A DNA stretch of 64,000 nt, from NCBI RefSeq assembly GCF_030295955.1, contig NZ_AP027363.1:496001-560000 (forward strand). Direction: 5' to 3'. A model generated the notes under the pieces. That model was not told the origin of the DNA, did no database searches, and saw only the letters and a list, made by a program, of their open reading frames with translations. Position numbers and translations under genes: made by a program. Positions 35,910-41,048 of this stretch are shown in pieces (within the stretch, counting starts at the first letter, position 1; every line of letters starts with the position of its first letter). This DNA is from Thalassotalea agarivorans (GTDB taxonomy: Bacteria > Pseudomonadota > Gammaproteobacteria > Enterobacterales > Alteromonadaceae).

Positions 35910-36407
35910 TTAGTCATCGGCAACAAGCGTTGAGTCTTGCTCAACTGTTGCTTGAATGACTGACAAGTTGTGTTTTGTTACGTCATTTTCTTGAATATGC
36001 ATTGCATCAGTTAAATCATCAATAGCAGCGACTCTATCGTTGTTTAAGTAATGCAAAATAGCTCTATTACTGTAGGTAACGGCTTTAACATATTGATCTT
36101 TTCTACTACGACCACCGGTCGCTTCTGATAAGCTTACTGCTTGATCGCAGTGAGATTTTGCTTGCTCGAATTGATTGAGCTTGATGTTGGCAACGCAATT
36201 AGCCGTTGCGATAGCGATTTCATTGCTTTCGCTTGCATTGGATACTTCTTCGAGTCCTTTTTCATAGTTACCCGCCACTATTTTTTTAGTGCCTGGGTTA
36301 TCTGAAAAAACAGCAACCTTTAAATTGTCTGAATTTGCGCTAGCAGTATACGAACATAAGGCGAATACTAGGGCTATCGATTTACTAAGTGTAGATGTAC
36401 GGTTCAT
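35910..36407 (-). CDS. Exported TPR-repeat protein
   Basis: A 165-residue protein with a signal peptide (cut near SYTASA). After it come helical repeats of TPR type (NYEKGLEEV, NQFEQAKSHCDQAVSLSE, TYSNRAILHYLNNDRVAAIDDLTDAM). Such small exported TPR proteins are common and poorly studied; likely a protein-interaction module in the periplasm. It has a good AGGAG site before the start. No partner is evident. Confidence 0.72.
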   Translation of the reverse strand: MNRTSTLSKSIALVFALCSYTASANSDNLKVAVFSDNPGTKKIVAGNYEKGLEEVSNASESNEIAIATANCVANIKLNQFEQAKSHCDQAVSLSEATGGRSRKDQYVKAVTYSNRAILHYLNNDRVAAIDDLTDAMHIQENDVTKHNLSVIQATVEQDSTLVADD

Positions 36408-36474
36408 CTTTCGTCTCCTTTTAGTGTATGAACTATGTACACTTTAGAAGTGACGCCTAAAACTGACAAACGAT

Positions 36475-36510
36475 AAAAAAACACTTACGAGGTGAAAAAA
36501 ATTCACCTCG
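36475..36510 (-). terminator. Terminator of the LysR regulator gene
   Basis: Stem CGAGGTGAA / TTCACCTCG (five-base A loop) followed on the minus strand by TAAGTGTTTTTTT. It starts 15 bases after the LysR stop. Confidence 0.75.
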
Positions 36511-36524
36511 CTATCATTCGAGAA

Positions 36525-37403
36525 TTATTGCTGAAATTCTTGTTTTACCCATTCAGCAAATGTCTGCAATTCTGGCGCTGATTCAATGTTTTTATGCTGA
36601 ATCAAAAAGTAGCGATCTCGAGTAATGAGTTCTTCTTGAAATAGTTTGACTAACATTTCTTCTTTGAACCACGTTTTACTGATGGGCAAGGGCACAAGCG
36701 CAATCCCCATACCTTGTTGAGCCGCTTTGGCAACAGAATACATACTATCGAATTGAATGATTTGTTTCGGATCAAAATTAGGGATATCTAACTGATCGGC
36801 CCATTTATGCCATGACCAAGGTCTCGCTTGATGCAAAATGAGGGGGACTTGGCTAAGCGCGTCATAACCTTTTGCGGCCCACTTTTTGTAAATACTTTTG
36901 TTACACGCAGGCACATATCTGATTGGAAACAATTCATGCACTATGCTTGCATTTGGCTTACCGCTGGCAAGTACAATAGACAAGTAGGCATTTTTTACTG
37001 CCTGATTTCCTGACTTAACCGTTTCTAGTTGCAAATTGATGCTTGGATTTAGCTCTGCCCACTCACTGAGTTTGGGGACAAAAAGTTCGTTAGCAAAAAA
37101 TTCTGGTAGGCTAACCGTAATCGTCTTATTGACCTCGCTTTGAGTAAATTCAGCGATGGTATTTTCTAAATTTTCAACAATAGGTTGTACCGCATGATAA
37201 AACTTATCGCCTGCTGCGGTAAGCTCTATAGCACGGGTGTTCCTTTTAAATAAGCTAAAGCCCAGTTGTTCTTCAAGTTGCTTTATTTGATGACTGACCG
37301 CAGAAGGCGTGAGGAAAAGTTGTGATGCGGCATGTTTAAAACTTAAACATTTAGCGGCTATACAGAAAGAGCGAAGTCCGCGAATAGGAGTTTGAATTGG
37401 CAT
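36525..37403 (-). CDS. LysR-family transcriptional regulator (GcvA-like)
   Basis: A 292-residue LysR regulator. The N-terminal winged helix (GLRSFCIAAKCLSFKHAASQ, LTPSAVSHQIKQLEEQLG, FKRNTRAIELTAAG) is complete and resembles GcvA/AmpR-type members; the effector domain spans about 95-290. It lies downstream, on the same strand, of two putative sRNA genes. Their terminators separate it from them. It is a natural, unproven candidate to bind the paired dyads upstream of both. Confidence 0.9.
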   Translation of the reverse strand: MPIQTPIRGLRSFCIAAKCLSFKHAASQLFLTPSAVSHQIKQLEEQLGFSLFKRNTRAIELTAAGDKFYHAVQPIVENLENTIAEFTQSEVNKTITVSLPEFFANELFVPKLSEWAELNPSINLQLETVKSGNQAVKNAYLSIVLASGKPNASIVHELFPIRYVPACNKSIYKKWAAKGYDALSQVPLILHQARPWSWHKWADQLDIPNFDPKQIIQFDSMYSVAKAAQQGMGIALVPLPISKTWFKEEMLVKLFQEELITRDRYFLIQHKNIESAPELQTFAEWVKQEFQQ

Positions 37404-37524
37404 AATAGTGTCTTATAAAATAATCCGAATAAGAGAAAGCAAGTCACGTGCCATTTATCTCATAACGTTTTTACTGGGCTAGGGTAGCAAGTCATAGTAA
37501 CGCGCGCACCAATATGGTGCAGGC

Positions 37525-37600
37525 AAGAAAAACGGTGCCTTATTCAGGCACCTAATCAACAGTATGAGAAAGCAATGAAACCTCAAGGTTTCAGAGCGTC
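37525..37600 (-). ncRNA. Putative small RNA B of a tandem pair
   Basis: Predicted transcript of about 76 nt. It has a 5' hairpin (GAAACC / GGTTTC, loop TTGA), a linker TTGCTTTCTCATACTGTT, and an intrinsic terminator (GGTGCC / GGCACC then GTTTTTCTT). The hairpin loop region CCTTGAGG could pair with Shine-Dalgarno sequences. The layout and linker are repeated in module A at 37731. No open frame is present. The transcript ends are predicted, not measured. Confidence 0.6.
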
Positions 37601-37606
37601 TATCAC

Positions 37607-37633
37607 CTTATAGTTTAATTAAACTACCGACAA
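37607..37633 (-). promoter_or_regulatory. Promoter of small RNA B
   Basis: TTGTCG (37633 to 37628) and TATAAG (37612 to 37607) with a 15-base spacer; an alternative -10, TAAGGT, gives a 17-base spacer. Distances to the upstream dyad (10 nt) and to the hairpin (41 nt) equal those of module A. Confidence 0.5.
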
Positions 37634-37643
37634 ATGATTGATT

Positions 37644-37660
37644 TTCACCTGACATGTGAA
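37644..37660. promoter_or_regulatory. TTCA-N9-TGAA dyad upstream of small RNA B
   Basis: TTCA, nine bases, TGAA; arms extend to TTTTCAC / GTGAAAA if the spacer is reduced. It is exactly 10 bases upstream of the -35 box. Same motif and spacing as at 37854. Probable activator site. Confidence 0.5.
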
Positions 37661-37730
37661 AAATTCTCACGCGTTTTAGAACAACGGGCTCGTGTTTTGC
37701 GGGGTTGGGGTGGGTTAAATGGCTAGTGCA

Positions 37731-37808
37731 AAAAAAAAAGAGGCCTTCATTAGAAGGCCTTTACTAAAAACAGTATGAAAGCAAAGAAATCGGGGAGATT
37801 TCAAGCAT
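37731..37808 (-). ncRNA. Putative small RNA A of a tandem pair
   Basis: Predicted transcript of about 78 nt. It has a 5' hairpin (GAAATC / GATTTC) with a C-rich loop TCCCC, a linker TTTGCTTTCATACTGTT, and an intrinsic terminator (AGGCCTTC / GAAGGCCT then a long T-run of 10). The loop CTCCCC is complementary to Shine-Dalgarno GGGGAG, a common seed type. It shares layout and linker with module B. A well-formed promoter precedes it. Confidence 0.65.
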
Positions 37809-37814
37809 GAATAA

Positions 37815-37843
37815 AGCATAAAAAGTTTAGAGCTTTTGTACAA
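37815..37843 (-). promoter_or_regulatory. Promoter of small RNA A
   Basis: TTGTAC, a 17-base spacer, TATGCT (positions 37843-37838 and 37820-37815). It would start transcription near 37808. Confidence 0.6.
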
Positions 37844-37845
37844 AC

Positions 37846-37878
37846 GAAAGGAATTCATGCAATAGGTGAATTCCTTTC
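37846..37878. promoter_or_regulatory. Dyad upstream of small RNA A
   Basis: Perfect 12-base arms GAAAGGAATTCA and TGAATTCCTTTC around nine bases. The inner part is TTCA-N9-TGAA (37854-37870), lying 10 bases upstream of the -35 box and matching the site at 37644. Confidence 0.6.
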
Positions 37879-38079
37879 ATTTATCTTAATCTAAATAGAA
37901 AAGTGTCTGTTTTCTTTACACTTCTAGATACTACTATTTGTAATTTTTTATTATGCTATTGATTTATATATATAATTAACTAAAGGTGCGATTATTGCAT
38001 AGCATTACCTTTGGGGGTATTCCTCTTTTGACTTGTCGTCAAACTGTTTTTAATAAAAGAAAAACAAGAAGGTAGTATT

Positions 38080-40810: not shown

Positions 40811-40886
<76 letters not shown>

Positions 40887-40972
40887 ACACTAAACTGTGT
40901 GCGATAAACAATGTTTACCTTGGCACCAAGTTACCGTTTACTATATTAGTTAACCATAACTTTATTAAGAAG

Positions 40973-41048
40973 TGGTGCCCAGAGGCGGAATCGAACCACC
41001 GACACGGGGATTTTCAATCCCCTGCTCTACCGACTGAGCTATCTGGGC
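40973..41048 (-). tRNA. tRNA-Phe (anticodon GAA)
   Basis: A 76-nt cloverleaf on the minus strand with encoded CCA: acceptor GCCCAGA/TCTGGGC, D-arm GCTCAGTCGGTAGAGC, anticodon loop TTGAAAA, T-arm GGTGG TTCGATT CCGCC. First gene of the small tRNA operon. Confidence 0.97.

What the first reader, a model, noticed from the sequence alone, without database searches (positions are those of the whole stretch)
37525..37878. Two tandem paralogous small-RNA-like modules between a LysR gene and a PEP-CTERM gene
Seen directly: on the minus strand two 76-78 nt units repeat the same order of parts. Each has a TTCA-N9-TGAA dyad, exactly 10 nt, a -35 (TTGTAC or TTGTCG), exactly 41 nt to the GAAA of a 5' hairpin, a shared linker TTGCTTTC..ATACTGTT, and an intrinsic terminator. 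The hairpin and terminator bases differ but keep their pairing, which suggests RNA-level selection. Hfq-type sRNAs commonly have exposed linkers and a U-rich terminator (established). That these two are real sRNAs and arose by duplication is inference.
Basis: partly seen in the sequence, partly recalled or inferred. Interest (0 to 1): 0.8.

Follow-up and report, generated by a model that had tools for sequence, protein, structure and literature searches.

The report
LysR-controlled tandem small RNA family
Two look-alike genes in a marine bacterium most likely make small regulatory RNAs that a neighbouring regulator switches on, probably when nitrogen runs short, and related bacteria carry one to several copies of the same unit.

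Summary
Two minus-strand units (M1, M2) share promoter layout, 5' hairpin, linker and terminator. The genome has a third copy (M3). All 30 LysR loci fetched have a unit upstream, in 1-3 copies; named relatives have up to five. The hairpin stem covaries; 46 of 60 copies keep a UCCCC-type loop. No Rfam family reaches its cut-off.

The own genome has four good sites: M1, M2, M3 and that gene. The box occurs in 43 of 44 genomes with the LysR and 7 of 74 without, so LysR is the likely activator. LysR's own promoter carries sigma-54 and NtrC-like sites.

Best reading: nitrogen limitation -> NtrC/sigma-54 -> LysR -> sRNAs whose C-rich loop blocks G-rich ribosome-binding sites, for example of TonB receptors. 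Relatives without this sRNA keep two such sites, so targets are unproven. M2 has lost the loop. It works like AbcR-LsrB and NtrC-MmgR; membership is not supported.

The parts
37838..37879 (-). M1 LysR-type box ending in the -35 TTGTAC
   Evidence: E 5.3e-9 with a model that includes it; E 4.7e-4 with own genome left out
37815..37820 (-). M1 -10 TATGCT, 17 nt from the -35
37731..37808 (-). M1 predicted sRNA, about 78 nt (start inferred from the -10)
   Evidence: start is inference
37786..37802 (-). M1 5' hairpin GAAATC-TCCCC-GATTTC with C-rich (anti-Shine-Dalgarno-like) loop
37730..37760 (-). M1 intrinsic terminator
37628..37669 (-). M2 LysR-type box ending in the -35 TTGTCG
   Evidence: E 4.8e-8 with a model that includes it; E 0.018 with own genome left out
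37605..37610 (-). M2 -10 TAAGGT, 17 nt from the -35
37527..37599 (-). M2 predicted sRNA, about 73 nt (start inferred)
   Evidence: start is inference
37577..37592 (-). M2 5' hairpin GAAACC-TTGA-GGTTTC; the C-rich loop is lost
37525..37552 (-). M2 intrinsic terminator
37505..37521 (-). NtrC-like site TGCACC-N5-GGTGCG upstream of LysR
   Evidence: consensus recalled, agrees with TGC-N11-GCA in PMC10746234 (passages)
37439..37453 (-). sigma-54 -24/-12 promoter TGGCAC-N5-TTGC of the LysR gene
   Evidence: only perfect match in the window; consensus recalled
36525..37403 (-). LysR-type regulator, GcvA/DsdC-like, proposed activator of the box
36438..36505 (-). fourth box, with -35 TTGTCA and -10 TAAAGT, in front of the TPR-like gene
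   Evidence: E 2.8e-11; E 1.2e-6 with own genome left out
35910..36407 (-). TPR-like protein (Pfam TPR_1 24.7 bits, below its 27.8 cut-off) with a signal-peptide-like start judged by eye; proposed protein member of the LysR regulon

Best explanation
M1 and M2 (with M3 elsewhere) are paralogous trans-acting small RNAs of a family not matched in Rfam. Their sigma-70 promoters are activated by the LysR protein encoded next to them, which binds the 42-bp box. The LysR gene is transcribed by sigma-54 RNA polymerase, probably with NtrC, so the RNAs should appear in nitrogen limitation, together with a TPR-like, probably exported protein under the same box. The RNAs probably act by base pairing: the C-rich loop of the 5' hairpin binds G-rich ribosome-binding sites and blocks translation of envelope proteins such as TonB-dependent receptors, a lipoprotein lipase and a DUF1302 protein. 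M2 keeps promoter and linker but not the loop, so it should act differently or be decaying. Supported by conservation here: the units, the covariation, the box and its link to LysR, the sigma-54 and NtrC-like sites. Inferred: transcription, LysR binding, nitrogen as the signal, Hfq, targets.
For: Box and unit upstream of LysR in 30 of 30 fetched loci (the 30 best matches) and 33 of 36 named Colwellia-type and Psychrosphaera loci. Fixed spacing: T 100, A 99 and T 99% at the -10 in 73 distinct promoters. Stem covariation. Box in 43 of 44 LysR+ and 7 of 74 LysR- genomes, Fisher p 1e-23, phylogeny not corrected. Four sites in the own genome at E<=1e-5. In genera with no sRNA upstream of LysR, the box still lies downstream of LysR in 38 of 44 loci, before the TPR-like family in 28. 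Sigma-54 site at least 8/10 in 63 of 94 upstream regions against 5.9 in shuffles; NtrC-like at least 10/12 in 56 of 94 against 1.2. GGGGAGA-N3-10-ATG: 116 matches in 7 genomes against 55 for the reversed pattern; TonB receptors, a lipase and a DUF1302 protein each in 6 of 7; 8 of 19 ORFs of two genomes in these clusters against 0 of 20 with AAGGAGA starts, p 0.001.
Against: No transcript or binding data. GGGGAGA is kept at the DUF1302 (7 of 7) and lipase (8 of 8) starts of near relatives with no LysR ortholog at E<=1e-40 and no sRNA match below E 0.001, so it is not explained by this RNA alone. M2 lacks the loop, as do 13 others of 60 picked copies. M3's box is missed by the model without own-genome sequences. 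The box was found in 7 of 74 LysR- genomes. G001 has the sRNA, but none of its GGGGAGA genes fell into the conserved clusters. The box model was trained partly on the same genomes; of 22 LysR+ genomes that gave it no locus, 21 have the box, but some may be species of the named loci. A general sigma-70 scan did not list M1 or M2.
Confidence: 0.7

Rival explanations
1. The units are real sRNAs under the LysR, but the signal is not nitrogen: another enhancer-binding protein drives the sigma-54 promoter, or LysR senses its own ligand (for instance redox, as LsrB does).
For: The NtrC motif was recalled and tested only as a pattern. M3 lies beside a peroxiredoxin-like gene. LsrB senses the redox state (PMC8844928, passages).
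Against: TGCACC-N5-GGTGCA at least 10/12 in 56 of 94 upstream regions against 1.2 in shuffles, in line with TGC-N11-GCA given for NtrC (PMC10746234, passages).
Confidence: 0.2
2. The LysR is a bystander; another LysR-type or other regulator binds the box.
For: Box matches in 7 of 74 genomes without the ortholog; of those fetched, some precede membrane-protein-like genes.
Against: 43 of 44 co-occurrence; the box lies on both sides of this LysR gene and stays downstream in 38 of 44 loci without the upstream sRNA.
Confidence: 0.1
3. The units are transcribed but are leaders, attenuators or decoys, or encode tiny peptides, not base-pairing sRNAs.
For: M1 and M3 contain an ATG before the hairpin; M2 has no C-rich loop.
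Against: Each unit has its own promoter and terminator, and the LysR gene has its own sigma-54 site downstream. That ATG is missing in most of the 60 copies listed. The loop core is kept in 46 of 60 while the stem changes.
Confidence: 0.08
4. Tandem copies are only the debris of a mobile repeat.
For: Dispersed and tandem copies, variable number.
Against: Promoter spacing, box and stem pairing are under constraint across genera; the main site is syntenic with LysR.
Confidence: 0.03

Closest known systems
AbcR1/AbcR2 with LsrB/VtlR (Alphaproteobacteria; the family label alpha-r15 is recalled)
   Same: Homologous sRNAs in tandem beside a LysR gene; the LysR activates AbcR1 through a box upstream of a sigma-70 promoter; CU-rich anti-Shine-Dalgarno motifs; Hfq-bound (PMC8844928 and PMC7143759, passages).
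   Different: 114-121 nt with two motifs against ~75 nt with one loop; no Rfam family reached its cut-off here; AbcR2 depends on RpoH1; the LysR here is GcvA/DsdC-like and its gene has sigma-54/NtrC-like sites; orthology with LsrB was not tested.
MmgR / SisA-D (alpha-r8, Rfam RF00519 suhB)
   Same: MmgR is 77 nt, has an anti-Shine-Dalgarno motif predicted in the first loop and is NtrC-induced; the family has several copies in some genera; TonB receptors are SisA targets in Caulobacter (PMC7143759 and PMC12559287, passages).
   Different: RF00519 is not among the window's matches. The match of Psychrosphaera copies (34.1 bits, cut-off 41) rests mainly on the terminator and lacks the CCUCCC motif.
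GcvA-GcvB (Enterobacteria, recalled)
   Same: GcvA-like LysR beside the sRNA gene it activates.
   Different: LysR scores 197.8 bits against the 288 cut-off of the GcvA model; no GcvB match; same direction, not divergent.
Nac (LysR regulator under sigma-54/NtrC, recalled)
   Same: Logic: NtrC/sigma-54 makes a LysR protein that activates sigma-70 promoters.
   Different: Nac is not among the 25 best of 53 NCBIfam matches shown; the predicted outputs here are mainly sRNAs.
NfeR1 (Sinorhizobium)
   Same: LysR (LsrB) activation and NtrC input at an sRNA (PMC10746234, passages).
   Different: There NtrC represses the sRNA directly; here the NtrC-like sites lie at the LysR gene.

Membership tests
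AbcR (alpha-r15) | match to a known Rfam covariance model at its cut-off | tested here: not met
   only two tRNAs in the window at gathering; relaxed searches list only unrelated families far below their cut-offs
AbcR (alpha-r15) | tandem homologous sRNAs beside a LysR gene | tested here: met
AbcR (alpha-r15) | LysR neighbour is LsrB/VtlR | not tested
   no LsrB sequence was compared
AbcR (alpha-r15) | Hfq binding | not testable with these tools
   needs co-immunoprecipitation
MmgR/suhB (RF00519) | match to RF00519 at its cut-off | tested here: not met
   not listed for the window; Psychrosphaera copies 34.1 bits, below 41
MmgR/suhB (RF00519) | C-rich anti-Shine-Dalgarno motif in the first loop | tested here: met
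   M1 and M3, and a UCCCC-type core in 46 of 60 picked copies; not M2
GcvA-GcvB | LysR passes the GcvA model cut-off | tested here: not met
   197.8 bits, cut-off 288
GcvA-GcvB | sRNA matches Rfam GcvB | tested here: not met
LysR-activated sigma-70 sRNA (general kind) | conserved LysR-type box at fixed spacing upstream of -35/-10, co-occurring with the LysR gene | tested here: met
LysR-activated sigma-70 sRNA (general kind) | the LysR binds and activates | not testable with these tools
   needs gel shift and deletion

The most novel reading that the evidence does not exclude
A LysR regulator whose direct output in a whole genome is almost only RNA: three sRNAs and one probably exported protein. 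Sigma-54/NtrC sets the regulator, tandem copying of the sRNA sets the dose (1-5 copies at the LysR locus, further arrays elsewhere). The promoter box is kept while the RNA below it can be exchanged: Psychrosphaera and an unnamed genus (g66) put different RNAs under the same box. The C-rich loop would then shut down nutrient uptake at the outer membrane in nitrogen limitation, a gammaproteobacterial parallel to the rhizobial AbcR and MmgR circuits.
Probability: 0.35. Interest if true: 0.75.

Novelty: new variant of a known kind. Interest (0 to 1): 0.58.

Why it matters
It gives a marine bacterial group an sRNA family with a likely activator, a likely signal and testable targets. If the cascade is right, LysR-driven tandem anti-Shine-Dalgarno sRNAs tied to nitrogen exist in both Alpha- and Gammaproteobacteria, and the varying copy number offers a natural test of what sRNA gene dose does.

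Tried and rejected
Rfam: no family at its cut-off for the window units; relaxed searches list only low matches, for instance Atu_L1 at 20.5 bits (cut-off 60) over the TPR promoter and ncS54 at 24.6 bits (cut-off 43) over M3. The suhB/mmgR match in Psychrosphaera was followed to its alignment and rejected, since it rests mainly on the terminator. DNA similarity of the whole region in 59 genomes found, beyond M3, one convincing relative (G029, E 6e-5). A tiny ORF in M1/M3 was dropped because most listed relatives lack the ATG. The test 'GGGGA at target starts tracks the sRNA' gave 30 of 30 (DUF1302) and 29 of 29 (lipase) in sRNA+ genomes, 5 of 5 and 5 of 5 in the g60/g76 group with odd hairpins, 10 of 10 and 9 of 10 in LysR+ genomes without this sRNA, and 13 of 30 and 15 of 22 in the rest; but the near relatives without LysR or sRNA keep it in 7 of 7 and 8 of 8, so it does not discriminate. 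In that grouping G031 counts as sRNA+ by R2 alone and G075 as g76 by genus; one near relative, G071, has a weak box match (E 7e-4). A search for a hidden copy in ten LysR- genomes gave no match below E 0.001 (best 0.00109; 7 of 10 had one at E<=1); five of these hits share a different promoter-like motif.

Rows dropped: G014 (30% identity) from the LysR+ count. R2 was built on 47 of 60 picked copies; 12 with odd hairpins and one ordinary L090 copy were left out. R1 used 50 of the 80 boxes printed. Of the 116 pattern matches, 30 came as loci, 81 more were chosen and 80 of them fetched; four alternative ATGs of the same sites and M3 itself were not; M1 was fetched (L253) but gave no ORF of 40 residues. 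The AAGGAGA control used the 30 loci fetched of 122 matches, 20 of them with an ORF of 40 residues. No structure prediction was run.

Full report
Observation. The -35 to -10 spacer is 17 nt in both. Both RNAs fold better than shuffles (z -4.81 and -4.79). The layout occurs only these two times in the window.

A third copy. A DNA search of the window's own genome (3,348,343 bases, one contig) found M3 at 2759748-2759789, minus strand, 98% identical over 42 bases of hairpin and linker. It has its own -35, a -10 after 17 nt, the same 41-nt distance to the hairpin and a different terminator, and lies divergent from a peroxiredoxin-like gene.

Relatives. A search of 118 genomes of the family with the LysR protein gave 45 with E<=1e-40; one (G014, 30% identity) was dropped, leaving 44 at 53-100%. 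All 30 fetched loci, the best matches, have the unit upstream of LysR: 24 with one, five with two, one with three copies. Among 80 named loci, the box lies upstream of LysR in 33 of 36 from Thalassotalea, Colwellia, Pseudocolwellia, Cognaticolwellia, Thalassomonas, Psychrosphaera and a few other labels (misses: L079, where only 125 bases upstream are held, L084, L085) and in 0 of 44 from Pseudoalteromonas, Rheinheimera, Alishewanella, Arsukibacterium and two unnamed Gammaproteobacteria. Of the 36, ten have more than one copy; five in L090 (Colwellia sp. C2M11) and L104 (Psychrosphaera), four in L094 (Colwellia polaris). Off-locus arrays lie upstream of the TPR-like gene in two genomes (L190, L191). 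The sRNA model R2 matched 94 of 395 family genomes at E<=0.001, 72 of them at E<=1e-6; weaker matches include the TPR promoter. Over the order, 11 of 295 genomes matched at E<=1e-4, seven of this family and four of one other. Both are with strict filters.

RNA. The 5' hairpin keeps its pairing while the stem changes: 89.2% of cells paired, 30 cells with both sides changed against 12.7 in shuffles (0 of 500), covariation score 0.355 against 0.237; slid versions are lower. Limits: the structure was my reading of the same alignment, relatedness is not corrected, and 12 odd hairpins of 60 picked copies were left out. A UCCCC or CCCCC core lies near the hairpin in 46 of 60 picked copies, CUCCCC in 36; it is absent in M2 and, among others, in Psychrosphaera. 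A leading CUUGUUUU is common in relatives but not in the window copies. The linker UUGCUUUC..AUACUGUU is shared by M1, M2 and M3 (UGCUUUC onward in M3) and was not seen in the other copies listed.

Control box. Across 73 distinct sRNA promoters the consensus is TgAAt.tAaTTcAcctaT.a..TGAaTTt.T.TCGTTTGtc, then TA...T; 79 distinct promoters downstream of LysR are nearly the same. In the own genome the 68-nt box model R1 finds four sites at E<=1e-5: the TPR-like gene, M1, M2 and M3; the next is E 0.04. All four were in the training set. Without own-genome sequences a model finds the first three at E 1.2e-6, 4.7e-4 and 0.018 and misses M3. In 118 genomes the box (E<=0.001) is present in 43 of 44 with the LysR ortholog and in 7 of 74 without. 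The one miss, G068, has a weaker box in its fetched locus (L203). Of 22 LysR+ genomes that gave R1 no locus, 21 have the box. Of 71 downstream-type boxes examined (69 in named loci plus L190 and L191), an ORF was found for 60, and 58 of these match the window's TPR-like protein. In the 44 loci without an upstream sRNA the box lies downstream of LysR in 38, before this protein family in 28. The LysR is thus the common element.

Regulation of LysR. In 94 distinct upstream regions, the best match to TGGCAC-N5-TTGC in the last 150 bases scores at least 8 of 10 in 63 against 5.9 from shuffles, often 50-60 bases before the start codon; TGCACC-N5-GGTGCA scores at least 10 of 12 in 56 against 1.2. Both patterns are recalled; the second agrees with TGC-N11-GCA given for NtrC in PMC10746234 (passages). 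In the window the sites are 37453-37439 and 37521-37505. LysR scores below the cut-offs of the GcvA and DsdC models.

Targets. GGGGAGA-N3-10-ATG, complementary to the loop, occurs 116 times in seven genomes against 55 for the reversed pattern. Of 65 ORFs of at least 40 residues, clusters present in 6 of 7 genomes are TonB-dependent receptors (13 genes), a lipase-like lipoprotein (6) and a DUF1302 protein (6); a further receptor-like cluster is in 5 (one member of each of the first three was checked with Pfam). In two genomes 8 of 19 such ORFs fall in these clusters against 0 of 20 ORFs with AAGGAGA starts (p 0.001); the clusters were defined on the same data. Against this, near relatives with no LysR ortholog and no sRNA match keep GGGGAGA in 7 of 7 and 8 of 8. 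The targets are candidates only.

Variation of the RNA under the box. In three genomes of an unnamed genus (g66, LysR 53% identical) a second box precedes a different terminator-ended stretch containing CCACCCUGUC (L197-L199). In Psychrosphaera the RNA has ACCCUGUUGAUUG. Whether these are homologous to the C-rich-loop RNA is open.

Literature. Passages of PMC8844928, PMC10746234, PMC7143759 and PMC12559287 were read; other papers were seen as search listings only. No paper on this family was noticed in the listings, which cover open-licence full texts only and show the top of long lists.

Verdict. Conserved, very probably real sRNA family; activator very likely the neighbouring LysR; nitrogen control likely; targets plausible but unproven. 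A new variant of a known kind.

Noticed in passing
L190 and L191 (G069 contig 21, G107 contig 12): Off-locus tandem arrays of the sRNA directly upstream of a box-controlled TPR-like gene: sRNA and TPR-like gene have moved or been copied together.
   Followed up: partly
L197, L198, L199: In three genomes of an unnamed genus (g66) the box precedes a different short terminator-ended stretch with CCACCCUGUC.
   Followed up: partly
L196, L206, L489: In genomes without the LysR ortholog, box-like sites precede short membrane-protein-like genes; perhaps read by another LysR.
   Followed up: no
L490, L491, L492, L493, L495 (around 1501): Five weak R2 hits in LysR-less relatives share another promoter-like motif, TTAGTTT.TCTAAT .. 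TTTGTC or TTGTC .. CTAGC, of unknown function.
   Followed up: no
L192, L193, L194 (G121): Several paralogous small proteins with a signal-peptide-like start, each behind the box, in a genome with only a weak sRNA-model match (E 7.9e-4).
   Followed up: partly
window 37846-37878: M1's dyad extends to a long inverted repeat that also looks like a plus-strand terminator.
   Followed up: no
window 40811-41048: tRNA-Thr and tRNA-Phe genes on the minus strand.
   Followed up: no
DUF1302 and lipase start regions, L348-L487: GGGGA at the ribosome-binding site is in all sRNA+ genomes examined, in 19 of 20 starts of LysR+ genomes without this sRNA, and in near relatives without LysR: a further constraint or another C-rich sRNA is possible.
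   Followed up: partly
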